From an uncultured Anaerolineaceae bacterium (GTDB lineage Bacteria; Chloroflexota; Anaerolineae; Anaerolineales; Anaerolineaceae): a DNA stretch of 29,133 bases. The stretch covers positions 1 through 29,133 of the forward strand of contig CALCQT010000165.1 of assembly GCA_937894825.1 (NCBI GenBank), given 5' to 3'. The stretch's first letter is position 1, and the number at the start of each line of letters is the position of its first letter. Made by a program: the position numbers and the translations under genes. Of this stretch, positions 215 through 14,030 are shown one piece after another. Below the pieces are notes generated by a model. That model searched no databases, was not told where the DNA came from, and saw only the letters and a list, made by a program, of their open reading frames with translations.

Positions 215-1018
215 CTACTTTCCTCCCTCATCAACGTCAATGATGAGTTGCCCTTCCTCCGACTGATAAATCTCATGGATTTTCTTCTTATCAAGATTTT
301 CAGTGAGTCCATCGTACACAACGCAGCCCGCTGTAATACCGATAACCCGTTCGGAATATTTCAAAGCAACGTCCACCTGGTGCAGGTTGAGAATGCAGGT
401 AATACGCATCGTTTCATTGATCGCTTTGAGATAGTCCATAATCACTCTGGCTGAACTCGGGTCCAGTGAGGCGATTGGCTCATCACACAGGATTAAGCGT
501 GGTTCCTGCATCAGCGCTCTGGCGATACCCACACGCTGCATCTGTCCGCCCGACAGTTCATCACAGCGTTTATAGGCCTGATCAGCAAGACCAAGGCGAT
601 CCAATATCTCAAATGCCTGCTCTTTTTCGGCCTCCGTGTAATAACCGACCACGCCGCTCAGCGTGGATTTATGCCCTAACCGGCCATGCAGCACATTTTC
701 AATAACGCTCAGCCGGTTGACCAGATTGTAGTGCTGAAAAATCATCCCAGTTCTGGTGCGAACCCAGCGCAGATCTTTTCCTGTTACATGGGTAATATCC
801 CTGCCGTCAAAAAGAATCTCACCCTCCGTTGCGTCAACCAGACGGTTAATGCAGCGCAAAAGTGTTGATTTCCCCGCTCCGGAAGGTCCAATTACGGAGA
901 CAAATTCACCTTCCTCAACCGAGATATTGACGTCCTGCAGCGCATGTACAGTATTATCGTAAGTTTTTCCGACTTTTTTTAATGTAAGAATGGTCGAATT
1001 TTGTTTTTCCTGATCCAT
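215..1018 (-). CDS. phnC: Phosphonate ABC transporter ATP-binding protein PhnC
   Basis: This is the ATPase of the PhnCDE importer, acting on the cytoplasmic face of the membrane. Visible motifs are Walker A GPSGAGKST (about residues 44-52), the ABC signature LSGGQMQRVGIARAL, Walker B LILCDEPIASLD and a C-terminal switch His in LHQVDVA. I chose the ATG at 1018 (MDQEKQ, 267 aa) because AAGGAAC sits just upstream of it; a frame starting at 1078 adds 20 residues with no homology value. The length fits PhnC, usually about 250-260 aa. The gene lies 163 bases downstream of phnD, with a strong stem-loop between them, and is followed after 4 bases by phnE. Confidence 0.93.
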   Translation of the reverse strand: MDQEKQNSTILTLKKVGKTYDNTVHALQDVNISVEEGEFVSVIGPSGAGKSTLLRCINRLVDATEGEILFDGRDITHVTGKDLRWVRTRTGMIFQHYNLVNRLSVIENVLHGRLGHKSTLSGVVGYYTEAEKEQAFEILDRLGLADQAYKRCDELSGGQMQRVGIARALMQEPRLILCDEPIASLDPSSARVIMDYLKAINETMRITCILNLHQVDVALKYSERVIGITAGCVVYDGLTENLDKKKIHEIYQSEEGQLIIDVDEGGK

Positions 1019-1130
1019 CTGGGTTCCTTGTTTCTGCAGTCCGCGAATATGTCTTTGATCCCATCGCTTGATCCGCAAATTGATAATTCTTATCCTATAA
1101 ATAAAGCCATACGCTTTCGACGGTCAGACC

Positions 1131-1161
1131 TGGGACGCGCACGAAAAATATGCGCGTCCCA
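1131..1161 (-). other. Intercistronic stem-loop between phnD and phnC
   Basis: Perfect 11-bp inverted repeat (TGGGACGCGCA / TGCGCGTCCCA) around a 9-base loop, GC-rich, lying 20 bases past the phnD stop. On the minus strand it is not followed by a T run, so it is unlikely to be a full terminator. Stem-loops in this position commonly protect the upstream mRNA of a binding-protein gene and so raise its level over the ATPase and permease; that role is inferred here. Confidence 0.7.
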
Positions 1162-1181
1162 ATCTTAATTACAACTTTGAC

Positions 1182-2216
1182 TTATTTCATTTCCCGAATC
1201 GGGTTGTACCAGGCGTCTTCAGCCAAAACGAACCGTTCGTTGTTGGTCTTCTTGAACAAGCCAACTTTGCCGGAATCCTTGACGAAGAAAATCTGACCAT
1301 TCGCGGCAACTTCGTCAGAGGTGAAGAGATCCTGAATTTTCTGGACATCTTCGGCGCTCAGTGTTTTCGCGTTATAAACAAAAGGACCATTCAAAACCGG
1401 TGTTGAGGTGATGATGACAAATTCTTTGCCGGTCAATGTGTCAAACGGAGCGGAAGCGTCAGCATTTACGGTATAAACGGCGCCGACTTTGTTTTCTTCG
1501 CCGGCAGTAACTTTGGCGTACGGAGCAAGTTCAGTGTCGCAGAAGGCAGCGACATCGGCTTTGCCGGTCAACAGGTTGACCGCTGAACCCTGATGGGAAC
1601 CGCCGAACAGAACTTCTGAGAAGAGCAGGTCGCTGCCGCCTTCAACAATGTCGTCCGCAGTGATTCCAGCCCATTTTTCGGTCGCGCCGAAGAAGCTGAG
1701 GATGCTGTTGCTGGGAACTTTGAAGCCGGAGGTGGAGCTGTTGCTGACAAAGGAGATGCGTTTTCCTTCAATTTTGGCGAGTGAGAAATCTGCACCATCT
1801 TTGTAGTTTTCTTCGTCGCCTTTGTTCACGGTCAGCCAGGAATAGTAAATGGCGTCGTCAAGGGTACCGGAAGCGCCGGAGTTTACGAACAGCAATTTGG
1901 CATCTTCGCTTTTGTTGGCGGCTTCGATATAACCCTGCGCACCCATGAAGGCGATCTGGGCTGTTCCGTTGGCAATCGCTTCAATCGCGATGGCATAGTC
2001 GGTGGTCAGTTTGTGCTCAACCTTTTTTCCGGTGGCCTGGGTGATCAGGTTGCCAAATTCCTGCCGGGCCGGTTCATAGTCAGCGGCAGATTCGTTCGGA
2101 TACCATACAAATGTGATGGTATCGTCGGCGGCTTCTGTGTTGGCGGTAACAAACAGCGCGGCAACCAGAATCAAAGCAAATACTGCAAAATACTTAACAA
2201 ATTTTTCGATTTTCAT
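1182..2216 (-). CDS. phnD: Phosphonate ABC transporter substrate-binding protein PhnD
   Basis: Extracytoplasmic binding protein (344 aa) that captures phosphonates, or possibly phosphite or phosphate esters, for PhnCE. The N-terminus is a signal peptide: basic MKIEK, hydrophobic core at about residues 10-24, and a cleavage-like TEAA at 27-30. No lipobox cysteine is present. The mature protein shows the PhnD/PtxB-type fold features: FVWYPNESAADYEP, then TTDYAIAIEAIANGTAQIAFMG, an SNSSTSGFKVPS segment corresponding to the phosphonate-binding Ser/Thr loop, and FGGSHQGSAVNLLTGKADVAA. A GAAGGA ribosome binding site lies 5-10 bases before the ATG. A 205-bp gap separates it from the upstream acyltransferase gene, so an extra promoter is possible, but I could not identify one. 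Confidence 0.92.
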   Translation of the reverse strand: MKIEKFVKYFAVFALILVAALFVTANTEAADDTITFVWYPNESAADYEPARQEFGNLITQATGKKVEHKLTTDYAIAIEAIANGTAQIAFMGAQGYIEAANKSEDAKLLFVNSGASGTLDDAIYYSWLTVNKGDEENYKDGADFSLAKIEGKRISFVSNSSTSGFKVPSNSILSFFGATEKWAGITADDIVEGGSDLLFSEVLFGGSHQGSAVNLLTGKADVAAFCDTELAPYAKVTAGEENKVGAVYTVNADASAPFDTLTGKEFVIITSTPVLNGPFVYNAKTLSAEDVQKIQDLFTSDEVAANGQIFFVKDSGKVGLFKKTNNERFVLAEDAWYNPIREMK

Positions 2217-2275
2217 TTCTTCCTTCTTTCAAAATAAATAAAATTATTTATAGCTACCATTCGAAGACAATCGCT

Positions 2276-2298
2276 TTGTTTGGCCAGTTGCCAAACAA
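2276..2298. other. Stem-loop in the phnD leader region
   Basis: A 9-bp perfect inverted repeat (TTGTTTGGC / GCCAAACAA) around a 5-base loop. A T-rich tract follows on the plus strand, but no plus-strand gene ends here. On the coding (minus) strand it lies in the untranslated stretch about 60 bases before phnD. It could act in mRNA processing or stability, or block 5' reading; nothing visible decides between these. Confidence 0.5.
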
Positions 2299-2328
2299 GC
2301 TTTTTATCATTTTTTCAGCGCCCACGTT

Positions 2329-2348
2329 TCAATGCATAGTCCTCCTCT
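2329..2348 (-). other. Strong ribosome binding site followed by a two-codon ORF
   Basis: On the minus strand an AGAGGAGG sequence is spaced 3 bases from ATG-CAT-TGA, a Met-His-stop minimal reading frame. It sits about 75 bases after the acyltransferase stop and about 110 bases before phnD. It may be a chance match, the damaged start of a lost gene, or a minimal upstream ORF. The ribosome binding site is stronger than that of phnD itself. Confidence 0.35.
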
Positions 2349-2421
2349 GGAACATAAGCTTTTCTAAACCGGTAGAAACCAATTGTTAAGCAAGTAGGCA
2401 AATTGATTAATACGGAAATGG

Positions 2422-3051
2422 TCAAATGATTTGTCCATTTCCGGTTCTTCCGCGATATTTTTTACAAAACGCTTCAATATTACTGAAGTCGGCAAGCCGT
2501 TCTTTCAGCTCCGCATGTGACCAATCCCACCAACGGCTGGATTGTATTGCCTGGATAATTTCGGGAAAAAATCGATAGTTAAAATAATGTGCCGGAACGC
2601 CTGCCACAACTTCGTAAGGAGCGACATCTTTCGTCACAACGGCCATCGAACCGATCACAGCGCCATTCCCAATCGTCACACCGCCCATAATAACGGCGTT
2701 ATATCCGATCCAAACATCATTCCCGATCACGACCTGTTTCTTTCTGCGCCAGTTGAAAAACTCTTCATCATCCTGCCCTAAGCCATATTGGGCACAGCGG
2801 TAGGTAAAATGATTTTGGGCCACACGCGTATAAGCCGGATGCTGCCCCGGATTAATCCTGGCATTCGTAGCAATAGAAACAAATTTTCCAATATCAGCGT
2901 AAATGATTTCGTTATAACGTCCGCAATAGGAATAATCCCCGATTTTGCTTTCGGTAATATCACAACCCTGACCGATTTCCACATAACGGCCAATTTCGGT
3001 CTGGACGACATTTGCTTCAGGATGAATCTGCGGATCATTCCCGAGGATCAT
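2422..3051 (-). CDS. Phosphonate-metabolism hexapeptide-repeat acyltransferase
   Basis: A 209-aa left-handed beta-helix protein of the xenobiotic/chloramphenicol acetyltransferase type, matching the transferase family often encoded inside C-P lyase operons. Visible features are an N-terminal run of imperfect hexapeptides ([32 protein letters not shown]), an NPGQHP motif, and the C-terminal repeats [20 protein letters not shown] and [24 protein letters not shown] basic and aromatic C-terminal tail follows. Its start overlaps the stop of the PHP gene by 4 bases (ATGA), implying coupled translation. The acceptor substrate is unknown. By analogy with the unrelated acetyltransferase PhnO of E. coli it may acylate aminoalkylphosphonates, but that is inference. 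Confidence 0.85.
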
Positions 3052-3986
3052 AGGGTCAAACCTCGATACGACGCTATTTCAATAGGGGGTTTTCCGTTTG
3101 TCATAAACGGAGGAGTCTCTTCCTGTGAATGCGTGATCAGTTTGTTCGATCCATCTGTCGGAGAAAGTCTGCATCCAAGTCCTGCTGAATCGCCGAACGT
3201 GCCATGAAAATCGCTGCCGCCGGTCATAAAAAGCTGATATTGTTCCGCCAGTGCTCGAATCCGGATCAAATCCGCTTCTGTGTGATCGGGATGGTTCAGT
3301 TCCAGGCCGTCCAGACCATCTGGAACTAACTCAGGGATCAGATCGAAGGAGTCGAGCTGTCCGGGATGCGCAAGCACCGCCAAGCCACCATCAGCCTTGA
3401 TCGCCCGGATCGCGTCATGCACATCACAGTATTCAATGTCGCCTGCGGCGATCCCGTACCCTTTGAAAAGCTTTCGGTACAATGCCTGATACGCTGGGGA
3501 TTCGAATGGCGCCTCGGTAATGGAGGCCATGATAAACTGTTTGTATAAAACCCCGCTGTCTTTTGTCAGACGCCTGATAAGGGCATTATCAATGGGATAA
3601 CCGGCCGCCCAGATTTTATCCAACTGCCGATGCGAGTGTGCATCCCGTTTTGTCAACGTTTCGTCACAAATACGATTGATATGAACTGCAGGCAGTCTGT
3701 ATTGATATCCGAGGATATGCACCTTCCGGTTACGTTTATAGTCGAATGCAGAGATCTCAATTCCCGGTATCAAGTGGATTTTGTTCTGGCAAGCCGTTTC
3801 CAATGCCACCGTATAAGTTCGTGTGGTGTCATGATCCGTAAAGGAAAGATGCGTGATTCCGACTGCGGCAGCCGTTGAACATATTTCCGAAACAGTACAG
3901 GAACCATCCGAATAAGTGCTATGAACATGTGCGTCCAGTTTGATCATTTCGCCAGTCATCATCTCATCCTTTCTCTCAAAAACCAT
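3048..3986 (-). CDS. PHP-family cyclic phosphodiesterase (probable phosphoribosyl 1,2-cyclic phosphate hydrolase)
   Basis: A PHP-domain metal-dependent phosphoesterase of 312 aa. It shows the PHP metal motifs in order: [30 protein letters not shown] and GSDFHG. An Eggerthella lenta PHP protein is known to hydrolyse both ester bonds of 5-phosphoribosyl 1,2-cyclic phosphate, the C-P lyase product, to ribose 5-phosphate and phosphate. The position here, directly between phnL and the acyltransferase in an operon with no visible phnP or phnN, makes the same role likely. The start at 3986 has GAGAGGAAACAGG upstream; an alternative ATG at 3962 also has AAAGGA nearby and would begin just before the first His motif. 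The stop overlaps the next start by 4 bases. Confidence 0.85.
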
Positions 3987-4018
3987 CCTGTTTCCTCTCT
4001 CTGCCTTATCTTGACCGA

Positions 4019-4720
4019 TTAACCTTCTGTGTCAGCGGTTTCTACGATGCTTTCCATCGTGTAAACCTGATCGCACAATCCTTCCATAAAAGCCAGGTCG
4101 TGAAAAATGCCGATCATGGTCGTCCCATGCTGTTTAAGTTTCTCAATCGCCTCTCGTACCTTATATTTCGAAGCGTCATCCAGACTTGCCGTCGGTTCAT
4201 CCAGAAGCAACAGGCGCGGTTGCTTGACCACAGCTCTGGCAATATTCAGACGGATCTTTTCGCCGCCCGAAAAAGTCAGCGGATAGTTGTCCCATAATTC
4301 TTCCGGCAAATCAAAAAATCGCAGTGCGTCCTGAGCAATCGGTTTTGCGTTTTCCTCATCAAGCCCCATCTCCCAAAGTGCTTTTTCCACCAATTCAAGC
4401 GCACTGCGTCTCGGCATAATATGCAGAAATTGAGAAACATAGCCGATCTCATTTTTCCGCAATGTAACCATCTTTTGTATATCAGCCGAAATCAGGTCAA
4501 TTCTGCCAAATGCGGCGGAGTCATACCAAATGTGACCGGACTGTGGCAGATAGGTACGATAAATACTTTTCAGAATGGTTGATTTTCCGCTGCCGCTCCG
4601 TCCGACAATCCCCAGAAACTCCCCCGTTTTTACCTCAAAACTGACCGAATGAATCGCCGGGATGGATCGCTGTAAGTGATGAATATAAAAACTCTTTTTT
4701 AGGTTTTCTACGCGAATCAT
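4019..4720 (-). CDS. phnL: C-P lyase ABC-type ATPase PhnL
   Basis: A 233-aa ABC ATPase subunit associated with the C-P lyase core rather than with a membrane transporter. It is required for phosphonate use in E. coli and binds on top of PhnK in the complex. Motifs are Walker A GRSGSGKST (about residues 40-48), Q-loop GYVSQFLHIMPR, signature FSGGEKIRLNIARA, Walker B LLLLDEPTASLD and switch His FHD. The Q-loop wording and length are typical of PhnL. Its start overlaps the phnM stop by 4 bases (ATGA), and the PHP gene follows after 32 bases. Confidence 0.93.
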   Translation of the reverse strand: MIRVENLKKSFYIHHLQRSIPAIHSVSFEVKTGEFLGIVGRSGSGKSTILKSIYRTYLPQSGHIWYDSAAFGRIDLISADIQKMVTLRKNEIGYVSQFLHIMPRRSALELVEKALWEMGLDEENAKPIAQDALRFFDLPEELWDNYPLTFSGGEKIRLNIARAVVKQPRLLLLDEPTASLDDASKYKVREAIEKLKQHGTTMIGIFHDLAFMEGLCDQVYTMESIVETADTEG

Positions 4721-5922
4721 AGGACGACTCCTTTCTTTATTCGAGAGGAGCTTTGGAAAAGAAGGTTTCCATCCACAAAACAGCTCGCCACATAGGGGAT
4801 ACGATCGATTTCTCTGACGATCAGGAGATCTGCTTTCTTTCCGGGTTGAAGAGAGCCGGTATCCTGGTCCATCCCGACTGCTTTCGCCGGATTCAGAGAG
4901 ACCTTTCCAACCATCTCAGGCAGCGGAAGATTGAATTCATGAACCAGCTTGAACACGCTCTGCAACAACGCCGCCGGATAATAATCGCTGCACAAAATAT
5001 CGATCGTGTCCGCCAAAATAGCCTCGGTCATACTGAGATTACCCGAATGTGACTTTCCCAGTAGAATGTTGGGGCTGCCGCCCACGGTCATCATGCCCAG
5101 GTCCTTCGCTTTTTTGGCTACCTCCAGGGTGATCGGAAATTCGCTGATGTTGATCCCCAGGTCATGAATTAAGCACACTTTTTCGAGCGTGTCATCATCA
5201 TGAGAGGCCACGGCGGTACCATTTTTGTGAGCCAAATCCACCAATTCACGAATGCTTTCCCACGTCAACACGTCACCATTCATTCCGTCGGCTGTGAACT
5301 GTTCTACCAGTTCTGCCTGATCCCCGGAAATTTTTATATACTCTTGAATTGCCTTGAGGAAGACTGCAGGATCCCGATATTGTCCTTGTCCCGGTCTGTG
5401 GTTCATAAAGGAAAGCAGATCCACCATCCCACTTTCAAGATAGGAACGAAGGTCTGCCACTTTTCCGACGCTGTCAATCTCAAAGCGGAGGTGAAGCTTG
5501 TTGTGAATCCATTGCCCTGATATCTTTTCCTTTGAAATGCTGGTAATCATCTGACCGACATTTTCATTCCGCCGGATCGGCTTCGGATCAAACAGATCTG
5601 TATCCAGCATAGACAGGCTGTGAAAGATTGTCGTAACCCCGTGCATCATCAGCATGCGCTGGACCTCATGAAGACTGATCGAAAAATCCATCAGAGCCGT
5701 GGAGCGCGGAGATGTCACCGTTTCAATGTAATCGGAATGAATATCAATGAAACCCGGCAGGATATAACCCCCTGCCGCGTCAACAACGGTTTCTGAATCC
5801 GCTGAGCGGAACACGCGGCCGTTGGTGAGCAGCTCAACAATTCTGTCATCCTGTACAATAACAGAACAGTTTTCCAAAACTTCGGTTTCTGTGACAACCC
5901 TGCCGTTCTCAATCACCATCAT
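4717..5922 (-). CDS. phnM: RPnTP pyrophosphohydrolase PhnM
   Basis: Amidohydrolase-superfamily enzyme (401 aa) that removes pyrophosphate from alpha-D-ribose 1-methylphosphonate 5-triphosphate, giving the 5-phosphate substrate of PhnJ. Diagnostic features are the PhnM-type metal motif GFIDIHSDYIE (His62, Asp64), the LHEVQRMLMMHGVTTIFHSLS segment, FMNHRPGQGQYRD, ASHDDDT, and the C-terminal CSDYYPAALLQS followed by NPAKAVGM..TGSL.PGKKADL. The start carries AAGGGA about 9 bases upstream and lies 69 bases after phnK. PhnM precedes phnL here, unlike the E. coli order phnKLM. Confidence 0.95.
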   Translation of the reverse strand: MMVIENGRVVTETEVLENCSVIVQDDRIVELLTNGRVFRSADSETVVDAAGGYILPGFIDIHSDYIETVTSPRSTALMDFSISLHEVQRMLMMHGVTTIFHSLSMLDTDLFDPKPIRRNENVGQMITSISKEKISGQWIHNKLHLRFEIDSVGKVADLRSYLESGMVDLLSFMNHRPGQGQYRDPAVFLKAIQEYIKISGDQAELVEQFTADGMNGDVLTWESIRELVDLAHKNGTAVASHDDDTLEKVCLIHDLGINISEFPITLEVAKKAKDLGMMTVGGSPNILLGKSHSGNLSMTEAILADTIDILCSDYYPAALLQSVFKLVHEFNLPLPEMVGKVSLNPAKAVGMDQDTGSLQPGKKADLLIVREIDRIPYVASCFVDGNLLFQSSSRIKKGVVL

Positions 5923-5991
5923 TCAAGCATTCCCTTTTTCGATAAAACAATTTTCAATTCTTCTCAGTACGCGAGCGAACAAGCTGAGCCG

Positions 5992-6834
5992 CTAAAGCAA
6001 CGAATAAACCAACTGCTGCGTATATGGATGCTGTGGATCTTCCAACACCTGATCGGTCAGACCTTCCTCAATAATCCTCCCATTCAGCATGACAATCGTG
6101 CGGTCCGCCAGCATCCGGACAACCGACAAATCATGGGATACCAGCAGAATACTATTCTTCCGTTCCCGTTGGATTTTTTGGATCAACTCTAAAACGTCAG
6201 CCTGGACGGACAAATCCAGCCCGGTGGTAACTTCATCCAGTAAGAGGATGGGCGGTTCATTGGCCAATGCTTTGGCAATCTGCACTCTTTGTTGCATCCC
6301 GCCGGAAAAATGAGACGGACTATCTTTCCGTCTGATCAGCGGAATATGAACCTGTTCCAGTAAGGTATCGCCTCGCTCCACCATGGAATGCACCTGGCGA
6401 TTCCCCGCGGCAATCATTTTTTCAGCGATATTACTCTGAGCGGAAAAATTCATTTTCAGTCCCATCATGGGATTTTGGTACACCATCCCTAATAACATGT
6501 TCCGCACCCATTTTTGCTGCTGACTTGAACTGAGAAAAAGATTTTCTTCCCCACTGTGATAAGCTTCGAGAAAGTATTCCCCGCTGGTAGCTTCGCTGTC
6601 AAAATACAACGCCTGCATCAGAGTAGATTTTCCGCTGCCACTCTCGCCAACAATTCCGACAATCTCACCCTGATAGAGAGAAAGTGAAATATCCTGACAA
6701 GCATAAACAGTGCGGCATTTCGGACAATACCCCTGCCTGCGATTCTCCGGCTTCCCGTCACAATGAGCACAGCCTTTGCCGAAGGTTTTGTTGAAATCTT
6801 TCAGGATCAGGATCGGTTTTTGTTGTTCGCTCAT
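5992..6834 (-). CDS. phnK: C-P lyase ABC-type ATPase PhnK with cysteine-rich insertion
   Basis: A 280-aa ABC ATPase that docks on PhnJ in the C-P lyase core complex. Motifs are Walker A GESGSGKST (residues 63-71), Q-loop MVYQNPMMGLKMNFS, signature FSGGMQQRVQIAKAL, Walker B LLLDEVTTGLD and switch SHDLSV. Compared with E. coli PhnK (about 252 aa) it carries roughly 28 extra residues between beta strand 1 and Walker A. These hold cysteines 22, 25, 37, 40 and 46 in a CX2C-X11-CX2C-X5-C pattern like a small zinc ribbon or metal site. Walker B has Glu-Val-Thr after Asp instead of the usual Glu-Pro-Thr. The start overlaps the phnJ stop by 4 bases. Confidence 0.93.
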   Translation of the reverse strand: MSEQQKPILILKDFNKTFGKGCAHCDGKPENRRQGYCPKCRTVYACQDISLSLYQGEIVGIVGESGSGKSTLMQALYFDSEATSGEYFLEAYHSGEENLFLSSSQQQKWVRNMLLGMVYQNPMMGLKMNFSAQSNIAEKMIAAGNRQVHSMVERGDTLLEQVHIPLIRRKDSPSHFSGGMQQRVQIAKALANEPPILLLDEVTTGLDLSVQADVLELIQKIQRERKNSILLVSHDLSVVRMLADRTIVMLNGRIIEEGLTDQVLEDPQHPYTQQLVYSLL

Positions 6835-7682
6835 ACTGTACCCGCTCCTTCGTCCCGGTTCAAAAACTCCAGCAAATAGCTTGAGTCGTTTGTCTGGTAA
6901 TAGACCTCGCCCGTGGCCTCGTCGATCAGCTCATCCAGATACACATTCTCCAAACCGGTCAGACGGCATTTTTTACCGACGAACCGCTCCCGCTGGAACG
7001 GATAATCATCAAAAGCAAGCGAGACCACTTTGGTATAAGGCGGAACCGCATAGATTTTCTTTTCCCGTCCTGCCCCGAACAACATCAAGGCAGGATTGTG
7101 ATCCAATTTCGGATTATCAAAGCGCGGAATGGGCGTAGGTGCCATCACATAGCGATCGTTGACAAATACCGGATGATCCGCACCGGTCGCCGCCTGCCCA
7201 TAGCACATAATATCCTCAAAAAGTTTGAGCCAGGCGCCGCTATAATCCGCTTCGGCATGAAGTTTTTTGGTTTTATATTCGCTGGGTTCAACATTCCGCA
7301 ATGGTTCCGGCAGCGGGACCTGCAAAATAAGGATTTGCCCTTCTTTTAACGGTTGTTCAGGAACACGATGGCGGGTTTGAATCAGCGTAGCCTCAGTGGT
7401 ATGGATGGTTGACGCAACGTCAGTCGTTTCCTGAATCAAATTTCGCAGGCTTACGGCATTGACAGATTCATCGGAGCCCTGATCAATGACTTTGATGATG
7501 TCGTCTTTTCCAACCAAAGACAGTGTAATCTGCAGTCCTCCGGTTCCCCACCCGCGTGCGATGGGCAGTTCACGAGAAGCGAAAGGCACCTGATACCCCG
7601 GAATCGCCACCGCTTTCAAAACCGCCCGGCGGATTTCCTTTTTGGAGCTTTCATCCAGAAAAGCAAAGTGGCGCTCATGCAT
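6831..7682 (-). CDS. phnJ: PhnJ, C-P lyase catalytic subunit homologue lacking most Fe-S/radical cysteines
   Basis: Homologue (283 aa) of the radical-SAM enzyme that cleaves the C-P bond of ribose 1-methylphosphonate 5-phosphate. Nearly all of the protein is well conserved against E. coli PhnJ: AVAIPGYQVPF (Gly29, equivalent to radical Gly32), GWGTGG, LIQTRHR.P, VPLPEPLR, RYVM.P.PIP, LFGAGREK.IYAVPP and the YLDE turn. However, the C-terminal CX2CX21CX5C motif is not kept. Only Cys239 (E. coli Cys241) remains; the positions of Cys244, Cys266 and Cys272 are Thr242, Thr264 and Leu270. The only other cysteine is Cys160. I chose the ATG at 7682, which overlaps the phnI stop by 8 bases and has AGAGGA upstream. 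The frame is intact, so this is not an obvious frameshift artefact. Confidence 0.93.
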   Translation of the reverse strand: MHERHFAFLDESSKKEIRRAVLKAVAIPGYQVPFASRELPIARGWGTGGLQITLSLVGKDDIIKVIDQGSDESVNAVSLRNLIQETTDVASTIHTTEATLIQTRHRVPEQPLKEGQILILQVPLPEPLRNVEPSEYKTKKLHAEADYSGAWLKLFEDIMCYGQAATGADHPVFVNDRYVMAPTPIPRFDNPKLDHNPALMLFGAGREKKIYAVPPYTKVVSLAFDDYPFQRERFVGKKCRLTGLENVYLDELIDEATGEVYYQTNDSSYLLEFLNRDEGAGTV

Positions 7683-8799
7683 GATGGTTATTTCCTCTCT
7701 GAACATCGCGGATCCGATCCAATTTCGATTGAAAGGTAACATAATGCGGCAACTTCAAATGGGAGACAAAACCGGTCGCTTCCACCGTGTCCACATGCAG
7801 CAACACAAATTCTTCGTCGGATGTTGGATCACCGGGTGTCGGATTCTCCATGGAATGCTCCAGAACACTCATGGCAATCGCCTTAATTTCATTCGCTCCA
7901 AAACAGAGCCCATATCCCAGTCCGATCCCAAGCTGATTCTTCTCATCCGCTTCCTGCCGGTCTTCTTCCATAAAAGCTTCAACTTCGGTCACTTCAATCT
8001 CGCCAATATAATATTCTTCGCATACACCGGAAAGTTCGGAAGTCACATAAAGCGGAAGATAGCCGACCCGTAATTCTCCGATCGTAGGATGATTATTGAA
8101 ACCATAACCACGGATTTTGGCATATCCCAGCGCGGTGACGGCGCCGGTCATCCCTCTCGTCAATATCTGAAGCCGAAGACTGCGGGCTGACGGAAAAACT
8201 AACGGTTCCATCGTGATATCGCGGGGTTCTTCATCACAAAGAACCGGCTGCGGGATCAGATTCTGTGCTCGCAGAGAATCCACTACTTTGGGAAATCTTC
8301 CTTCTTCTTCGAATGACGCTTCCGCTGTCTTTTCCATCGCGTTCAAAATAGCCGCATAATATTGATCCCGAAAGGCAATGACATCCGCTTCAGTTTCATT
8401 AATCAGATCCCAATTCAGTAATCGGTGCTGATAATCCGGAGAAGCACCCAGAATTTGTCCGCCCAGAATATCTTTGAAGCTGGCGGAGATTCTTCTTTCG
8501 ACCCGCATTTCGGCTGTGTCGGTAACGGTCGTAAAATACAGGCGTGGCAAGGTAGAACGATGCGCCCGCAACAAAAAAATCGCCTCGAATGGATCACCCT
8601 GTGCCTGTTTGAGCGCTAATGCCGCCAGATCAGGACTGTACAAACTGCTCTCAGACATCACAGAATCCACCATCTTTTTCAAGTTCGCTTTGATTTCCGT
8701 CAGAGAGATTGAGGTCCCATCCAAACAGTTCTCATATCTTGCTAAAAGAATGGATTCGCGGATCGCTTCCGCGCCCCCCTGGACAGCTACGTACCCCAT
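7675..8799 (-). CDS. phnI: C-P lyase core subunit PhnI
   Basis: A 374-aa subunit of the PhnGHIJ core. With PhnG and PhnH it displaces adenine from ATP to form the ribose 1-methylphosphonate 5-triphosphate. Conserved blocks include MGYVAVQGG at the N-terminus, LAALALKQAQGDPFEAIFLLRAHRSTL, the RVERRIS..FKDI.GGQ.LG segment, RLLN, NNHP.IGELR.GY, GLGYGLCFGANEIKA.AM, and the C-terminal DEEFVLLHVDTVEATGF followed by SHLKLPHYV with the His pair expected to bind zinc near the PhnJ interface. The ATG shares one base with the phnH stop (TGATG). The length is close to the E. coli protein (354 aa). Confidence 0.95.
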   Translation of the reverse strand: MGYVAVQGGAEAIRESILLARYENCLDGTSISLTEIKANLKKMVDSVMSESSLYSPDLAALALKQAQGDPFEAIFLLRAHRSTLPRLYFTTVTDTAEMRVERRISASFKDILGGQILGASPDYQHRLLNWDLINETEADVIAFRDQYYAAILNAMEKTAEASFEEEGRFPKVVDSLRAQNLIPQPVLCDEEPRDITMEPLVFPSARSLRLQILTRGMTGAVTALGYAKIRGYGFNNHPTIGELRVGYLPLYVTSELSGVCEEYYIGEIEVTEVEAFMEEDRQEADEKNQLGIGLGYGLCFGANEIKAIAMSVLEHSMENPTPGDPTSDEEFVLLHVDTVEATGFVSHLKLPHYVTFQSKLDRIRDVQRGNNHHA

Positions 8800-9416
8800 C
8801 AGGCCACCTCATTAAGGATTTGCTTCGTAACCCGTGTTGTTCGGGGAAGCGAGAGCACACGGGCCGCACTGTCGATAAAGATGCAGTCGATTCCAAGCGG
8901 AAACTCCACGTTTTTCAGCCGGCGGATCGCAGCCCAATCCCAAGCACAATCAATGGTTATTTGAATATTATTGTCAATTCCGGGACCCTCGCAGCGATAA
9001 ACTGTGCCATGCGAAACAGACGCGCATTCGATCAGAATCGTCGCGGACGCATGCGGATCATAAATCGTTCCGATTTTTGCCTGTTCCATTATCCGGGGAG
9101 CATTTTCCATAGCATCCAGCGGAATATCCCCAGGGATAATGACGAAATCCGCGGCTTCAGGGATTTCACGATGAGCCGAAGTCAGAATCTGAATTTCCTG
9201 AATGGTATGCATATCATCCATCCCGCAATAAAATCCTGTGTTGATATCCAGCAGTGTTTTCAGGACTTCCATTGTGGCAGGGAAAAGCAGGCTATTCGTA
9301 TACAGCGAAATGACTTCATCAGGTATTTGAACAGGCCTGCCGGCATAGGCCATGGACTGTAAAATCAGTCGGAATACTTTTTGTGTATTGTGAACAGTTA
9401 TTTTGTCGTCCATCAT
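8799..9416 (-). CDS. phnH: C-P lyase core subunit PhnH
   Basis: A 205-aa subunit of the PhnGHI nucleosidase and of the C-P lyase core; it resembles a PLP-fold protein without its cofactor. It is recognised by the N-terminal TQKVFRLILQSMAYAGRP block, the YDPHASATILIECASV segment and the conserved C-terminal FPLGIDCIFIDSAARVLSLPRTTRV. AAGGG lies just before the two adjacent ATGs, and the gene begins 6 bases after the phnG stop. Length matches E. coli PhnH (194 aa). Confidence 0.92.
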   Translation of the reverse strand: MMDDKITVHNTQKVFRLILQSMAYAGRPVQIPDEVISLYTNSLLFPATMEVLKTLLDINTGFYCGMDDMHTIQEIQILTSAHREIPEAADFVIIPGDIPLDAMENAPRIMEQAKIGTIYDPHASATILIECASVSHGTVYRCEGPGIDNNIQITIDCAWDWAAIRRLKNVEFPLGIDCIFIDSAARVLSLPRTTRVTKQILNEVA

Positions 9417-9422
9417 TCGCCC

Positions 9423-9848
9423 TTAATCCTGCATCGTGCTGAAATTCACGCTGGTCTTTTCACGGATTGCACGGTTTATCTTTTTATAAACTTTTTCCTT
9501 TTCCAAAATCTGGTCCCAGTATCGATCCCATTCGCCTGTTTCAGGTAAACCGGCTCGATAAGCAGCATCCACAACAGCCAAAGCCTCGCTCAGATCCGGG
9601 TGGCTGCCCGTCAGGATTCCCAACCCAATACTGCCGCGAATGCGGACCTTTGTTTCCGTAATCAATACTTCTCCTAAATAAAAGAGCGTTTGCCTGGCTG
9701 TTTCGCGAACCTTAATCATTGCGAGCCCTTCCTGAGGTCGTAAGATCCATTCAACGAGATAATTTGCCTTTATTTCTTTTGCCATCTGTAAAGCTTCTTC
9801 GTTCCCATGGCCGATCAACAACCGCGTGCGCTCTCTGCACTGTTGCAT
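9423..9848 (-). CDS. phnG: C-P lyase core subunit PhnG, first gene of the operon
   Basis: A small (141 aa) subunit of the PhnGHIJ complex. Family features include RTRLLIGHGNEEAL, the RPQEGLAMIKVRETARQTLFYLGEVLITE block and RGSIGLGILTGSHPDLSEALAVVDAAY. I chose the ATG at 9848 because AGGAGGAG lies immediately upstream; extending to 9881 would place that ribosome binding site inside the gene. It is the promoter-proximal gene of the minus-strand phn operon, and its leader contains the Pho-box-like element at 9918-9945. Confidence 0.92.
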   Translation of the reverse strand: MQQCRERTRLLIGHGNEEALQMAKEIKANYLVEWILRPQEGLAMIKVRETARQTLFYLGEVLITETKVRIRGSIGLGILTGSHPDLSEALAVVDAAYRAGLPETGEWDRYWDQILEKEKVYKKINRAIREKTSVNFSTMQD

Positions 9849-9917
9849 TGGTTCTCCTCCTGCATTTTGATTCATCAACAAAGATAGCTTGTCGCCAAGT
9901 TGTAATATTCAATTCTG

Positions 9918-9945
9918 TGTAAAGCTTTGAGGAATTTTTTGTAAA
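9918..9945 (-). promoter_or_regulatory. Pho-box-like repeat A upstream of phnG
   Basis: On the minus strand the sequence reads TTTACA-N5-TTCCTC-N5-TTTACA, with the outer copies exactly 22 bp apart, that is two 11-bp steps. This matches the layout of PhoP boxes in Bacillus (TT[A/T/C]A[C/T]A repeats at about 11-bp spacing). It lies 70 bases upstream of the phnG start codon, oriented with it. A 12-bp palindrome (AAAACCGGTTTT, 9943-9954) touches its upstream edge. A -10 could lie in the following AATATT, but no firm match is seen. Confidence 0.5.
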
Positions 9946-10279
9946 ACCGGTTTTTAAGTCCCAGTCCCGATGCCATCGAATATTCAGGACGATTTTCTTT
10001 TGCGGTTCTTTCGCAATAAGATCGAAACTTGGGCATAAAAGCCGGCCTGATGAACAGGAAAATCATTGTTACATATTCCGACTTTCCCTGTAATTTTTAT
10101 GTCTGACTCCAATATTCTTGTCGGGAATGATCGTTTTCTGTCACACCTGCCTTTCCGACATACTGCAAAAAATCGATCTTCAAAACAAATATCGCATTTG
10201 ATCAACGGTTTCGAAAACAAAAGGCATCTTGCAATTCGTTCGCAAATTTACAAAATGACTTTTCGAAAATTATTTTCCG

Positions 10280-10307
10280 TGTAAAGCTTGGATTAATTTT
10301 GTGTAAA
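10280..10307 (-). promoter_or_regulatory. Pho-box-like repeat B in the phnG-gntR gap
   Basis: A second element with the same architecture and orientation as the one upstream of phnG: TTTACA-N5-TTAATC-N5-TTTACA on the minus strand, outer copies again exactly 22 bp apart. The two elements share AAGCTTTACAC. It lies 362 bp upstream of the first and 155 bp before the divergent gntR start, so it could serve a second, distal phn promoter or a small transcript in between. Confidence 0.45.
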
Positions 10308-10375
10308 CATTTTCAAGTTCACAAAGGTTGTTCAGACGACAGTATCGTGCAGTCCTCAAACCATTTTGAAATAAC

Positions 10376-10390
10376 CGTAATAAAATTACG
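10376..10390. promoter_or_regulatory. Candidate operator palindrome upstream of gntR
   Basis: Perfect inverted repeat CGTAAT-AAA-ATTACG, 72 bases upstream of the GntR-family start codon. Its GT...AC outer bases fit the loose pattern of HutC-type GntR operators, so autoregulation and control of the divergent phn promoter are plausible. Palindromes this short arise by chance, so this is tentative. Confidence 0.35.
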
Positions 10391-10462
10391 AGTAAGGGGA
10401 GGGATACCCCGCCGCATGACCGTTTGTTGAGGTCTGATGCCTGAACACTTGAAAGGAGTCCT

Positions 10463-11176
10463 ATGCCAAAAGATCGTCAAAAGGAAACAGAGATTCGGGA
10501 AGATTTGGCATACCAAATCCAAAGTCATCAATTCGCAAAAGATGAAAAGCTTCCCAGCGAATACGAACTGGCGGAAAAATATGGCGTGACTCGGATCACA
10601 ATTCGGAACATTTACGTTACGCTGCGGGAAATGGGTCTGATTTATTCAAAGCAGGGAATCGGTCATTTCGTTCTGGGAAAAATTGGCAATATCGAAATCC
10701 CGCAAAAAGGACGCGGTAGTTTTACTGAGAAGATGCGCGAGCAGGATATTCCTTGCGAAACAATAAACATTTTCTGTAAACCAGTTCTTTATTCAAAGAA
10801 TATATTTGCCCGACTGAAAGCGGATGAGAATGAAGCGGTCTATTGTATTTGCCGGCTGCGACTCCTTTATAAAGTGCCGGCCGCCATCCATTTTTCCTAT
10901 TTATCAAAAACAAGATTTCCGTCTATTGACAGAGAAGGACCCTTAATCACCTCAATCTTTGATTACTACCGCCAACAGGGATATCGGGATTTTCTTGACA
11001 GCGCTGTGACATTGAGCACAAGTTTCCCTACCCGCCAGGAGAAAACCTGGCTTCAATGCGGGTCGCTGGTGCCGCTCCTGGTGATGGTCAGTGATTGCAT
11101 CGACGCGGACAGCATGGAGATTCTGGAGACCACCCGTGTGATTTACCGCAGTGACATTTTTCAACATATTCTATAA
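10463..11176 (+). CDS. GntR-family (HutC/UTRA) regulator, PhnF-like
   Basis: A 237-aa transcription factor. The N-terminal winged helix-turn-helix (about residues 10-70) has the GntR signature KLPSEYELAEKYGVTRITIRNIYVTL followed by the wing GLIYSKQGIGHFV. The C-terminal UTRA effector domain contains the typical CRLRLLYKVPAAIHFSYL and DFLDSAVTL segments. It has an excellent ribosome binding site, AAAGGAG, 6 bases before the ATG. Its divergent position next to the C-P lyase operon suggests it regulates phosphonate use, as PhnF does in other bacteria. The ligand is unknown. A strong terminator follows after 12 bases. Confidence 0.88.
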   Translation: MPKDRQKETEIREDLAYQIQSHQFAKDEKLPSEYELAEKYGVTRITIRNIYVTLREMGLIYSKQGIGHFVLGKIGNIEIPQKGRGSFTEKMREQDIPCETINIFCKPVLYSKNIFARLKADENEAVYCICRLRLLYKVPAAIHFSYLSKTRFPSIDREGPLITSIFDYYRQQGYRDFLDSAVTLSTSFPTRQEKTWLQCGSLVPLLVMVSDCIDADSMEILETTRVIYRSDIFQHIL

Positions 11177-11249: not shown

Positions 11250-14030
11250 TTATTTTTTATGGACAATCGTCCGGCGATCTTCCGGATCCGGGTGATCCAA
11301 CTTCGCCTGAGCGGCAGCCAGACGCGCTACCGGCACACGGAACGGAGAACAGCTCACATAGTTATTTCCAATAATATGGCACCATTCAATGGAGCTGGGA
11401 TCACCGCCGTGTTCACCGCAGATCCCAACGTTCAGATCAGGGCGCGCGGAGCGGCCTTCGCGAATCGCAAACTTCATCAATTGCCCGACACCATCACGAT
11501 CCAACACCTGGAACGGGTTCTCAGGCAAAATCCCTTCCTCGACGTATTTCACCAGGAAGGAATGTTCCGCGTCGTCACGGCTGTATCCATAGGTCATCTG
11601 GGTAAGGTCGTTCGTCCCAAACGAGAAGAACTCAGCCACTTCGGCAATTTCCTTCGCTGTCACCGCCGCGCGCGGGATTTCAATCATCGTTCCAAACAGA
11701 TAATCGATTTTGACGTTCCGCTCGGTCGTGATTTCCTTCGCAATTTCAACCAGCCGCGGTTGGATGCGTTTCAATTCATTCACATGACCGGTCAGCGGGA
11801 TCATGATCTCCGGTTTCGGATCGAAGCCACGCGCTTTGACGTCACAGGCCGCTTCGAAAATGGCCCGCACCTGCATTTCTACGACTTCCGGCATCATAAT
11901 GCTGAGCCGAACGCCCCGCAGACCCATCATCGGGTTGGATTCATGCAGATTTTCTACTTCCTTGAGCATCTTTTCGAGATCAGCCAATTCTTTGTCAATG
12001 GCTTTCCCATTCACATAATCCGCAATTTTTTCGATCCGTTTTGTGATAATGCTTTCCATCAGATCTTCTGCGGATGGCAGGAACTCATGCAACGGGGGAT
12101 CGATCAAACGAATAATGACCGGATAACCACTCATCGCCTCGAAAATACCGTCAAAATCTCCACGCTGGAACGGCAACAACTCATTCAGAGCAGCGGTCCG
12201 GTCTTCGGAAGTTTTTGCCAGAATCATACGTTGAACAATCGGCAGCCGTTCGGTCTCGAAGAACATGTGCTCGGTTCGGCAAAGGCCAATTCCTTTGGCT
12301 CCGAATGATCGGGCCCGGGTTGCATCACGCGGATAGTCCGCGTTGGCCCAGACTTCCATTTCAGCGGTATCGTCCGCCCATGAAAGCAATGTCGTCAGAT
12401 CCTTCATTTCGTTCAAATCCGGATAAACCACACCGATTTGACCGACATACGCGTTCCCGGTTGACCCATCGACGGAAATCCAATCACCTTCATGCAGTGT
12501 CAAATCGCCGCAAACCAGAACTTTTTTATCCAGATCAATCCGGATTGCGGAAGCACCAACAACACAGGGCACACCGAACTGGAAAGCTTTCCGCGCGGCG
12601 CGGGCACCGAACTGGCGCGCAACAACCGCAGCATGAGAAGTTGCGCCGCCTTCTGATGTCAAAATGCCTTTGGCTGAGAGCATACCATGGACGTCATCCG
12701 GTTTAGTAAAAGGCCGCACCATGATGCAGTCCTGTTTTTCTACTTCGGCCATCTCGACGACCTTATCGGCGTCGAAATAAATCCGACCGACCGCTGCACC
12801 GGGGGAGGCGTTCACGCCGTTAGCAAACGGCTCGGTTTTCTTCAATTCTGTCGGATCAAATTGTGGATGGAGAAGCGCATCCACCTGTTTGGTTTTGACC
12901 CGTTTCAAAGCAATTTCTTTCGTGATCAGCTCTTCGTCCACCAATTGAACGGCAACCGCGACTTCCGCTCGGGCTGTTCGTTTACCATTACGAGTCTGCA
13001 GGATCCAGAGTCGGCCACGTTCGATGGTGAATTCGATATCTTGCATATCCTTGTAGTGCTTTTCGAGTTTTCCCATAATATCCAGGAATTCACGATAGAC
13101 TTCCGGCATGACCGTCTGCAGCGTGGCAATTTTTTCTGTGTTGCGGATCCCCGCTACAACATCTTCGCCCTGTGCATTCAGCAGATAGTCACCGAACAAT
13201 TCCTTCGTCCCATCCACCGGATTGCGCGAGAAAGCAACGCCAGTGCCGGAATCGTTCCCCATATTTCCGAACACCATCGTCATAATGTTCACTGCTGTCC
13301 CCAGACTGTCCGGAATATTTTCAGCTCGCCGGTAATCAATCGCGCGCTTGCCGTTCCAGGATCGGAAAACCGCCTGTGTCGCCAGCCGCATCTGTTCCAA
13401 AGGTTCCTGTGGAAAGTCAGTTCCATACTCCGCTTTAACCACTTTCTTGAAAATCGCGGTCAATTCCTTCAGGTCTTCGGCAGTCATTTCGGTATCCAGC
13501 TTATACCCTTTGGCCTCTTTAAATTCATCCATCGGAGCTTCGAACGCTTCGTCCGGAATTTCAAGAACGACAGAGCCAAACATTTGGACTAACCGCCGAT
13601 AAGAGTCATAGACAAACCGTTCATTCCCGGTCAGCTCAGCCATACCTTGGGCAGTCTCATCGTTCAAACCGATATTCAGAACCGTATCCATCATCCCCGG
13701 CATAGAAAATTTCGCGCCGGAACGGCATGAAACCAGCAGTGGATTTTTCTTATCTCCGAATTTCTTATCGGATTCTTTCTCAACCGCGGCCAAGGCGACG
13801 AGAATTTGGTCCCACAGGCCATCCGGGAATTTTCCGTTCAGCGAATATTCATTACAAGCTTCTGTAGTCACGGTAAACCCTGGCGGGACCGGAACACCAA
13901 TCCGGGTCATATCACCAAGATTAGCGCCTTTTCCGCCTAACAAACCACGAACATTATCCCAATCGCCACCAACATAAGCCTCGGCCTGTTCAATTTCGTT
14001 GAACAAGTAAACCCATTTTTTCTCTGCCAT
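11250..14030 (-). CDS. ppdK: Pyruvate, phosphate dikinase with insertion beside the catalytic histidine
   Basis: A 926-aa cytoplasmic enzyme interconverting pyruvate, ATP and phosphate with PEP, AMP and pyrophosphate. In anaerobes it often serves PPi-linked glycolysis. The N-terminal nucleotide-binding domain shows GGKGANLGDM, PVPPGFTVTTEAC and SCRSGAKFSMPGMMDTVLNIG. The central phosphohistidine domain has GGATSHAAVVAR with His466. The C-terminal TIM barrel has GIGLCRTEHMFF, MMGLRGVRL, MIEIPRAA, FFSFGTNDLTQMT and GICGEHGGDP. The start at 14030 has AAGGAAAAG directly upstream; a frame from 14099 adds 23 unlikely residues. Eleven extra residues follow VVARQFG, created by a 33-bp repeat-flanked insertion. 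It is last in the tdk-hpt-cca-ppdK cluster, after a 160-base AT-rich gap that may hold its own promoter. Confidence 0.95.
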   Translation of the reverse strand: MAEKKWVYLFNEIEQAEAYVGGDWDNVRGLLGGKGANLGDMTRIGVPVPPGFTVTTEACNEYSLNGKFPDGLWDQILVALAAVEKESDKKFGDKKNPLLVSCRSGAKFSMPGMMDTVLNIGLNDETAQGMAELTGNERFVYDSYRRLVQMFGSVVLEIPDEAFEAPMDEFKEAKGYKLDTEMTAEDLKELTAIFKKVVKAEYGTDFPQEPLEQMRLATQAVFRSWNGKRAIDYRRAENIPDSLGTAVNIMTMVFGNMGNDSGTGVAFSRNPVDGTKELFGDYLLNAQGEDVVAGIRNTEKIATLQTVMPEVYREFLDIMGKLEKHYKDMQDIEFTIERGRLWILQTRNGKRTARAEVAVAVQLVDEELITKEIALKRVKTKQVDALLHPQFDPTELKKTEPFANGVNASPGAAVGRIYFDADKVVEMAEVEKQDCIMVRPFTKPDDVHGMLSAKGILTSEGGATSHAAVVARQFGARAARKAFQFGVPCVVGASAIRIDLDKKVLVCGDLTLHEGDWISVDGSTGNAYVGQIGVVYPDLNEMKDLTTLLSWADDTAEMEVWANADYPRDATRARSFGAKGIGLCRTEHMFFETERLPIVQRMILAKTSEDRTAALNELLPFQRGDFDGIFEAMSGYPVIIRLIDPPLHEFLPSAEDLMESIITKRIEKIADYVNGKAIDKELADLEKMLKEVENLHESNPMMGLRGVRLSIMMPEVVEMQVRAIFEAACDVKARGFDPKPEIMIPLTGHVNELKRIQPRLVEIAKEITTERNVKIDYLFGTMIEIPRAAVTAKEIAEVAEFFSFGTNDLTQMTYGYSRDDAEHSFLVKYVEEGILPENPFQVLDRDGVGQLMKFAIREGRSARPDLNVGICGEHGGDPSSIEWCHIIGNNYVSCSPFRVPVARLAAAQAKLDHPDPEDRRTIVHKK
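12572..12615. repeat. 11-bp direct repeat framing a 33-bp insertion inside ppdK
   Basis: The 11-mer CACCGAACTGG occurs at 12572-12582 and again at 12605-12615, exactly 33 bp apart. The 22 bases between are GC-rich. The insertion is in frame and gives the protein a doubled QFG flanking ARAARKAF, immediately after the phosphohistidine loop. Confidence 0.85.

What the first reader, a model, noticed from the sequence alone, without database searches (positions are those of the whole stretch)
6873..6968. PhnJ without the radical and Fe-S cysteines in an otherwise intact C-P lyase operon
The sequence shows directly that PhnJ keeps the whole fold, including the glycyl-radical glycine (Gly29), but has Thr242, Thr264 and Leu270 where E. 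coli PhnJ has Cys244, Cys266 and Cys272. Only Cys239 is kept, and Cys160 is the only other cysteine. From established work on E. coli PhnJ, Cys241/244/266 hold the [4Fe-4S] cluster and Cys272 forms the thiyl radical. So this subunit cannot bind the cluster in the known way or use the known radical. Yet the frame is clean, translation is coupled to phnI and phnK, and all partner genes are intact, which argues against decay. Either a different C-P cleavage chemistry, ligands supplied by another subunit, or a non-lyase use of the complex is implied.
Basis: partly seen in the sequence, partly recalled or inferred. Interest (0 to 1): 0.85.

Follow-up and report, generated by a model that had tools for sequence, protein, structure and literature searches.

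The report
C-P lyase PhnJ without cluster cysteines
A bacterial enzyme complex that breaks very stable carbon-phosphorus bonds is thought to need four special cysteines, yet this copy and many relatives in several phyla have lost three or all of them while keeping the rest of the machinery, so the accepted chemistry can now be tested directly.

Summary
The window's only phnJ encodes an intact PhnJ with Cys239, Thr242, Thr264, Leu270 where E. coli has Cys241, 244, 266, 272. This is not decay. The same three cysteines are missing in many Bacillota C-P lyases (Staphylococcaceae, Trichococcus, Vaginisenegalia, others; Lysinibacillus-type ones keep Cys266), in all 120 listed Chloroflexota-type PhnJ (five have no cysteine at all), in two Thermus plasmids, and in one of two phn clusters of a Haematobacter plasmid. 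A tree test rejects a single origin (p = 1e-5). In PhnG to PhnM these three are the only residues conserved in the canonical rows and lost in both lineages. Gly32 and the reported metal- and product-binding residues at the PhnI-PhnJ His site are kept; selection is purifying; operons are complete; 18 of 18 genomes checked with reduced or intermediate PhnJ had no second PhnJ (Haematobacter is an exception). Most reduced Bacillota operons keep a gene resembling the enzyme that consumes PhnJ's product. My reading: a recurrent cluster-less C-P lyase that still breaks C-P bonds, probably at the His/metal pocket. Function is inferred; I found no activity data. My searches of open papers showed no report of it.

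The parts
6831..7682 (-). phnJ, cysteine-poor (pattern C-T-T-L at E. coli 241/244/266/272)
   Evidence: PF06007 450.5 bits; alignment to PDB 7z15_D; AlphaFold model, best of five, pLDDT 83.5, TM 0.87 to 7z19_D
6873..6968 (-). codons Leu270 (6873-6875) to Cys239 (6966-6968): the former cluster/thiyl site
7675..8799 (-). phnI; His residues equal to E. coli 219, 328, 333 present
   Evidence: PF05861 425.9 bits
8799..9416 (-). phnH
   Evidence: PF05845 126.1 bits
9423..9848 (-). phnG
   Evidence: PF06754, TIGR03293 89.1 bits, cut-off 89
5992..6834 (-). phnK ATPase, with N-terminal CxxC..CxxC insert (Cys 22, 25, 37, 40)
   Evidence: ABC_tran; best NCBIfam TIGR02323 PhnK 196.5 bits, under its cut-off 302.85
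4717..5922 (-). phnM, RPnTP diphosphatase
   Evidence: NF011990 453.8 bits, over cut-off
4019..4720 (-). phnL ATPase
   Evidence: TIGR02324 254.4 bits, just under its cut-off 256.3
3048..3986 (-). PHP-domain phosphoesterase, likely hydrolase of the PhnJ product PRcP
   Evidence: best NCBIfam NF041661 phosphoribosyl 1,2-cyclic phosphate 1,2-diphosphodiesterase 289.7 bits, under its cut-off of 500 (an Eggerthella homolog scores 355, a Gordonibacter one 547)
2422..3051 (-). hexapeptide acyltransferase of phn operons
   Evidence: TIGR03308 256.4 bits, over cut-off
1182..2216 (-). phnD-like binding protein
   Evidence: TIGR01098 112.5 bits, just over cut-off; TIGR03431 PhnD under cut-off
215..1018 (-). 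phnC-like transporter ATPase (named by position and similarity); the contig ends beyond it, so phnE is not seen
   Evidence: ABC_tran 132.3 bits
10463..11176 (+). phnF-like GntR/UTRA regulator
   Evidence: PF00392, PF07702; no NCBIfam equivalog reached its cut-off
11250..14030 (-). ppdK, host gene flanking the phn island
   Evidence: PPDK_N, PEP-utilizers; 84% identity to a same-genus genome where no phn genes lie beside it

Best explanation
The window carries a C-P lyase operon of a recurrent class in which PhnJ has given up the [4Fe-4S]/Cys272 site but is otherwise a full PhnJ. SHOWN: three cysteines lost, at least twice independently; Gly32 and the His-site residues kept; purifying selection; GHIJKLM present; no second PhnJ in the window's genome or in the 18 others checked. 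INFERRED: the complex still makes the ribosyl phosphonate (PhnI, G, H, L), trims it (PhnM), cleaves the C-P bond to give 5-phosphoribosyl 1,2-cyclic phosphate (PRcP), and the PHP enzyme opens the ring. MOST SPECULATIVE STEP: the bond is broken where the product is modelled in the E. coli cryo-EM structure, at the metal held by PhnI His328/His333 with PhnJ His108, Arg107, Gln124, without a PhnJ-bound cluster; in canonical enzymes the cysteine site would then be an accessory or only one way of starting the reaction.
For: PhnI H219/H328/H333 in 22 of 22 reduced (C1), 8 of 8 intermediate (C2) and the one cysteine-free (L002) system; PhnJ G32, G47-W-G-T50, R107, H108, Q124 likewise, and the PhnJ set in 120 of 120 listed Chloroflexota-type hits and 11 of 11 further genomes of the window's class. 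Three columns only in PhnG-M (C244, C266, C272 of PhnJ) are at least 90% conserved in canonical rows and lost in both lineages. One origin rejected, AU p = 1.3e-5. phnJ dN/dS 0.018-0.046 in the 7 of 10 C1 pairs where it could be computed, against 0.026-0.088 in 5 canonical pairs. One PhnJ per genome in 18 of 18 genomes with reduced or intermediate PhnJ and in 20 of 20 genomes of the order of Staphylococcus equorum (six are in both sets). A PHP gene in 18 of 22 C1, 8 of 8 C2 and 41 of 51 C4 loci by clustering, or 20 of 22, 8 of 8 and 48 of 51 by tblastn; best match NF041661 in 7 of 7 tested. The 30 A gap between cysteine site and Gly32, and PRcP modelled at the His-site metal, are reported in PMC9947105 (passages).
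Against: No activity, metal or growth data for any reduced PhnJ were found. Published E. coli work assigns C-P cleavage to the cluster and Cys272. A Haematobacter plasmid keeps a canonical and a reduced cluster, which would fit two different reactions. Cys241 is kept in all Bacillota rows and 114 of 120 Chloroflexota-type rows, so some role of that thiol remains possible. Six of the seven PHP matches are below the family's cut-off, and no PHP gene is annotated near the Thermus clusters or the reduced Haematobacter cluster (those gene tables are incomplete).
Confidence: 0.5

Rival explanations
1. The reduced complex no longer cleaves C-P bonds by a radical; it performs a related reaction on a narrower set of substrates, for example metal-assisted attack of the ribose 2-hydroxyl on phosphonates with a stabilised carbon leaving group, or on another phosphorus compound.
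For: Three of four cluster/thiyl residues are gone; a Haematobacter plasmid carries both kinds side by side, suggesting different roles; pocket residues kept.
Against: Same operon content and transporter genes as canonical operons of Bacillota; few shared substitutions accompany the loss.
Confidence: 0.2
2. Radical chemistry is kept: a separate activase installs the glycyl radical on Gly32 and Cys239 (E. coli Cys241) takes over as the thiyl residue.
For: Gly32 invariant; Cys241 kept in 22 of 22 C1 and 8 of 8 C2 and 114 of 120 Chloroflexota-type hits.
Against: Six of the 120 hits and L002 have Asp or Ser there, and five of the 120 plus L002 have no cysteine in PhnJ; in the Bacillota loci no activase-like or other gene family marks the reduced operons, apart from three neighbours in 41-45% of them.
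Confidence: 0.13
3. The cluster has moved to another subunit, for instance the CxxC..CxxC insert of PhnK, which binds PhnJ.
For: Insert with four cysteines in 22 of 22 C1 and 8 of 8 C2 PhnK.
Against: The same insert is in 98% of the canonical rows, so it did not arise with the loss; L002's PhnK lacks it.
Confidence: 0.07
4. Decay or sequence error.
For: Three functional residues lost.
Against: Purifying selection, independent sequences, recurrence in separate lineages, intact operons.
Confidence: 0.02
5. The four-cysteine site of canonical PhnJ was never catalytic in the cell but a metal-binding structural or regulatory element, replaced by other packing here.
For: Replacements at 272 are mostly Met, Leu, Ala or Val, and at 266 Leu, Ile or Val in Chloroflexota-type but mostly Thr in Bacillota rows; residues 231-270 are modelled at pLDDT 87-94 without the cysteines (best of five models); 30 A distance problem.
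Against: Published reconstitution work on E. coli PhnJ, recalled, and cited in passages of PMC7916636 and PMC4389238.
Confidence: 0.08

Closest known systems
E. coli C-P lyase PhnJ (PDB 7z15-7z19, 4xb6)
   Same: Fold (TM 0.87, rmsd 2.7, 55% identity), Gly32, product-binding residues, operon partners
   Different: Lacks Cys244, 266, 272 and so the CX2CX21CX5C motif
Intermediate PhnJ of Ureibacillus, Lysinibacillus, Metasolibacillus, Solibacillus, Caryophanon, Bacillus ndiopicus
   Same: Same Bacillota branch, lacks Cys244 and Cys272
   Different: Keeps Cys266
Chloroflexota/Thermus-type PhnJ
   Same: Same three cysteines lost, Gly32 and His site kept
   Different: Separate origin; PhnI has Cys two residues before His328 in 14 of 14 Chloroflexota-type loci (11; L002, L122.1, L123) but Ala in both Thermus loci

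Membership tests
PhnJ (PF06007) | Profile match over cut-off, full length | tested here: met
   450.5 bits, positions 3-271 of 275
C-P lyase core complex | phnGHIJ with phnK, phnL, phnM in one operon | tested here: met
   (PhnK and PhnL below the NCBIfam equivalog cut-offs)
PhnJ as non-canonical radical SAM enzyme | CX2CX21CX5C cluster/thiyl motif | tested here: not met
   CX2TX21TX5L; motif as given in PMC4389238 (passage)
PhnJ glycyl radical enzyme | Gly32 | tested here: met
   Gly29 of the window; whether it carries a radical is not testable here
C-P lyase His site | PhnI His328/His333 and PhnJ Arg107, His108, Gln124, loop 47-50 | tested here: met
C-P lyase | Cleavage of PRPn to PRcP and alkane | not testable with these tools
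   needs biochemistry

The most novel reading that the evidence does not exclude
The accepted [4Fe-4S]/SAM/Cys272 mechanism is not the general C-P bond-breaking chemistry of C-P lyase: in at least two independent lineages over several phyla, including PhnJ proteins without any cysteine, the bond is broken at the PhnI-PhnJ metal site by a chemistry not yet described.
Probability: 0.38. Interest if true: 0.93.

Novelty: new variant of a known kind. Interest (0 to 1): 0.82.

Why it matters
C-P lyase makes methane in oxygenated water and frees phosphate from phosphonates such as glyphosate. How it breaks the bond is unresolved because the cluster cysteines lie about 30 A from the radical glycine (PMC9947105, passages). 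Nature has deleted most of the cysteine site and kept the rest, more than once, partly in cultured or named strains (Thermus thermophilus HB8 pVV8, Trichococcus, Macrococcus), so the question which site does the chemistry becomes a direct experiment. It would also mean that phnJ counts in metagenomes mix two kinds of enzyme.

Tried and rejected
Decay, sequencing error, misalignment, and a second canonical phnJ were each tested and rejected for the window. Contamination of the bin by a Bacillota contig was considered, since the operon is Bacillota-like: rejected, because ppdK, hpt and tdk on the same contig are 83-87% identical, and cca 54%, in the same order in a same-genus genome without phn genes there (families, gene names partly recalled). 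Compensating cysteines in other subunits and linked genes were sought in the Bacillota set and none marks the whole class. A structure model of cysteine-free P0134 was poor (pLDDT 47) and is not used. A viral-contig scan gave nothing. Rfam found nothing in the window at gathering scores. NCBIfam had no match for 5 of 5 PhnJ proteins given, E. coli's included. Whether the Bacillota reduced and intermediate rows are one clade is unsettled: one starred clade in the 5-gene tree, but not in the two other trees, where holding them together is not rejected (AU p 0.38 and 0.19), so more than two losses are possible. The one-origin test on PhnJ alone was weaker (p 0.037). Ohtani 2012 on pVV8 and Seweryn 2015 are not held, so whether pVV8 was shown to support phosphonate growth is unknown to me. 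Lysinibacillus sphaericus is cited as degrading glyphosate to glycine and phosphate, with a sarcosine pathway in reference titles (PMC7017551 passages), and a Salinicoccus as giving AMPA (PMC7602795 table row); strains and genes are not linked to these loci, so neither is used as evidence.

Full report
WHAT IS THERE. The window holds, on the minus strand, phnG, H, I, J, K, M, L, a PHP-domain phosphoesterase, a hexapeptide acyltransferase, phnD and phnC, with a divergent phnF-like regulator. PhnJ (7682-6831) is full length; its model superposes on E. coli PhnJ 7z19_D with TM 0.87, rmsd 2.7 and 55% identity.

RECURRENCE IN BACILLOTA. Of the 133 proteins in hand after two searches, the window's own included, 94 had all four cysteines, 6 were C-T-C-M, 1 was a fragment (P0008), and the other 32 had only the first. 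A scan of named genomes, deliberately aimed at the reduced motif and cut at the best 80 of 127 matches, gave 80 loci. With the window and L002 the state was read in 82 systems: 51 canonical, 8 intermediate (C-T-C-M; Ureibacillus, Lysinibacillus, Metasolibacillus, Solibacillus, Caryophanon, Bacillus ndiopicus), 22 reduced (the window; Jeotgalicoccus, Salinicoccus, Macrococcus, Staphylococcus equorum, Trichococcus, Vaginisenegalia, an Erysipelotrichaceae, a Family XIII and an unnamed Bacillota MAG) and L002. These are not prevalence figures. Even draws of genomes, each with its centre genome, are fairer: the order of Staphylococcus equorum, 20 of 120 genomes with PhnJ, 20 of 20 reduced; the order of Trichococcus, 4 of 198, 3 reduced and 1 canonical; the class of Cytobacillus, 25 of 398 genomes with 26 PhnJ: 22 canonical, 2 intermediate, 2 reduced; the phylum of Gordonibacter (Actinomycetota), 10 of 246, all canonical.

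RECURRENCE IN CHLOROFLEXOTA AND BEYOND. L002, from a genome of the window's order, has none of the four. A search with it scored 7998 candidates and kept 7786; all 120 listed (named ones: Chloroflexaceae, Oscillochloris, Chloroploca, Roseiflexaceae, Anaerolineae, Anaerolineaceae, Caldilineaceae and others of Chloroflexota) lack cysteines 244, 266 and 272. Six of them also lack 241, and five have no cysteine in the protein at all. The rest of the 7786 were not seen. In the window's own class 12 of 396 genomes have PhnJ; the window and 11 others are all reduced, and one of those genomes (G1513) also holds an 84-residue fragment without the motif region, which could not be scored. In the window's order 3 of 400 have it: the window, L002, and one canonical long-branched PhnJ, L084. 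Two Thermus thermophilus plasmids, pTthSNM1-1b and HB8 pVV8, carry phnC-E and G-M with C-T-I-M and C-T-V-M PhnJ. A Haematobacter massiliensis plasmid has two phn clusters, one canonical (seen from F to K, where the stretch ends) and one reduced (F to M), and Rhizobium sp. AB2/73 has a reduced PhnJ. Canonical among the fetched controls: E. coli, Acidovorax, Sinorhizobium, Paracoccus, Arthrobacter and a haloarchaeon.

INDEPENDENT LOSSES. Trees leave out the C-terminal motif region of PhnJ. The careful tree of PhnI plus PhnJ (48 rows chosen by me) puts the Chloroflexota/Thermus/alphaproteobacterial reduced rows together (4 rows, 100/100) inside a clade with Actinomycetota, L084 and a haloarchaeon (12 rows, 95/93), and the Bacillota rows, with Eggerthellaceae, in another (31 rows, 100/100). 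Holding all 20 reduced or intermediate rows together costs 78 log units, AU p = 1.3e-5. In the five-gene tree of 83 loci the intermediate and reduced Bacillota rows form one clade of 30 (SH-aLRT 99), fitting loss of 244 and 272 before 266; the two other trees neither show nor reject that clade.

WHAT IS KEPT. In E. coli numbering, PhnI His219, 328, 333 and PhnJ Gly32, Gly47-Trp-Gly-Thr50, Arg107, His108, Gln124 are unchanged in 22 of 22 reduced, 8 of 8 intermediate and the cysteine-free L002 system. These are residues reported to hold the metal, the radical or the product PRcP (PMC9947105, passages). In the later loci His328 and His333 are present wherever PhnI was read; position 219 is Glu in one canonical PhnI (L127) and was not read in two (L133, L161). 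Over PhnG, H, I, J, K, L and M the only columns at least 90% conserved in the canonical rows (56 to 66 per gene) and kept in at most 10% of 22 Bacillota reduced rows (21 for PhnM) and 20% of the second lineage (3 to 5 rows per gene, up to two of them Thermus) are the three cysteines. Four columns show a shared gain; the clearest is Tyr at PhnK 62 (20 of 22 and 5 of 5). No gene family within about 10 kb marks the reduced Bacillota operons, except three neighbours in 41-45% of the loci, which look like Staphylococcaceae neighbours (not checked further).

SELECTION AND COPY NUMBER. Nei-Gojobori dN/dS of phnJ is 0.018-0.046 in 7 of 10 reduced pairs (3 saturated, the window with L004 among them), 0.054 in the one computable of 3 intermediate pairs, and 0.026-0.088 in 5 canonical pairs; many dS values exceed 1, so the ratios are rough. 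Over the last 52 codons the ratio is 0.022-0.089 in the 7 reduced pairs where it could be computed. Twenty genomes checked (12 reduced, 6 intermediate, 2 canonical) have one PhnJ each, as do the 20 genomes (six are in both sets).

WHAT THE OPERON SAYS ABOUT FUNCTION. A PHP-domain gene lies in 18 of 22 reduced, 8 of 8 intermediate and 41 of 51 canonical loci of the Bacillota-directed scan by clustering, or 20, 8 and 48 by tblastn. Its best family is phosphoribosyl 1,2-cyclic phosphate 1,2-diphosphodiesterase in 7 of 7 proteins tested; only the Gordonibacter one passes the curated cut-off, and an Eggerthella one also falls below. If the assignment is right, the substrate of that enzyme is the product of PhnJ, which argues that the reduced systems still make it. 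That the founding enzyme comes from Eggerthella lenta is recalled, not looked up.

HOST AND TRANSFER. The window's contig belongs to its genome: tdk, hpt, cca and ppdK beside the island are in the same order in a same-genus genome (87, 83, 54 and 84% identity) with no phn genes next to ppdK. The other PhnJ of the window's class are Chloroflexota-type, while the window's operon is Bacillota-type, nearest to a Family XIII MAG (88% in PhnJ). So a Bacillota-type operon was probably acquired by a member of that class. The class being Anaerolineae is an inference from protein names.

MECHANISM. My best reading is that the reduced systems still cleave C-P bonds without a PhnJ cluster, most likely at the His/metal pocket (confidence 0.5 for the whole). 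Everything about activity is inference. The strongest rival is a related non-radical reaction on fewer substrates (0.2); the two clusters of Haematobacter fit it well.

NOVELTY. Open papers treat the four cysteines as features of PhnJ (PMC11978286 passages; PMC12413358 passages; PMC4389238 passage). The listings of searches showed no report of their loss; 27 papers hold both PhnJ and cysteine, of which I saw passages of five and only listings of the other 22. Subscription journals were not searched.

Noticed in passing
L125 (Rhizobium sp. ZX09 plasmid) and L126 (Proteus mirabilis plasmid): The opposite variant: PhnJ keeps all four cysteines but has Val at Thr50 and Gln at His108; phnGHIJ and two ABC genes sit beside an iron ABC transporter with no phnM annotated in the stretch.
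   Followed up: no
L122 (Haematobacter massiliensis plasmid pOT1-5): Two phn gene clusters on one plasmid, one canonical and one with cysteine-poor PhnJ.
   Followed up: partly
window 5992-6834, PhnK residues 22-40: A CxxC..CxxC insert in PhnK, in nearly all PhnK of the Bacillota-directed scan, absent from E. coli PhnK.
   Followed up: partly
L154-L164, L002, L122, L123: Chloroflexota-type PhnI has a cysteine two residues before metal ligand His328 (SGFCIH); Thermus has Ala there.
   Followed up: no
L084 (G411, same order as the window): Canonical four-cysteine PhnJ on a long branch with Phe at Trp48; a fragment of perhaps the same kind lies in G1513 (L165).
   Followed up: no
window 215-11176 beside ppdK: The phn operon looks like a transferred island of Bacillota type in a host whose class otherwise showed Chloroflexota-type PhnJ.
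   Followed up: partly
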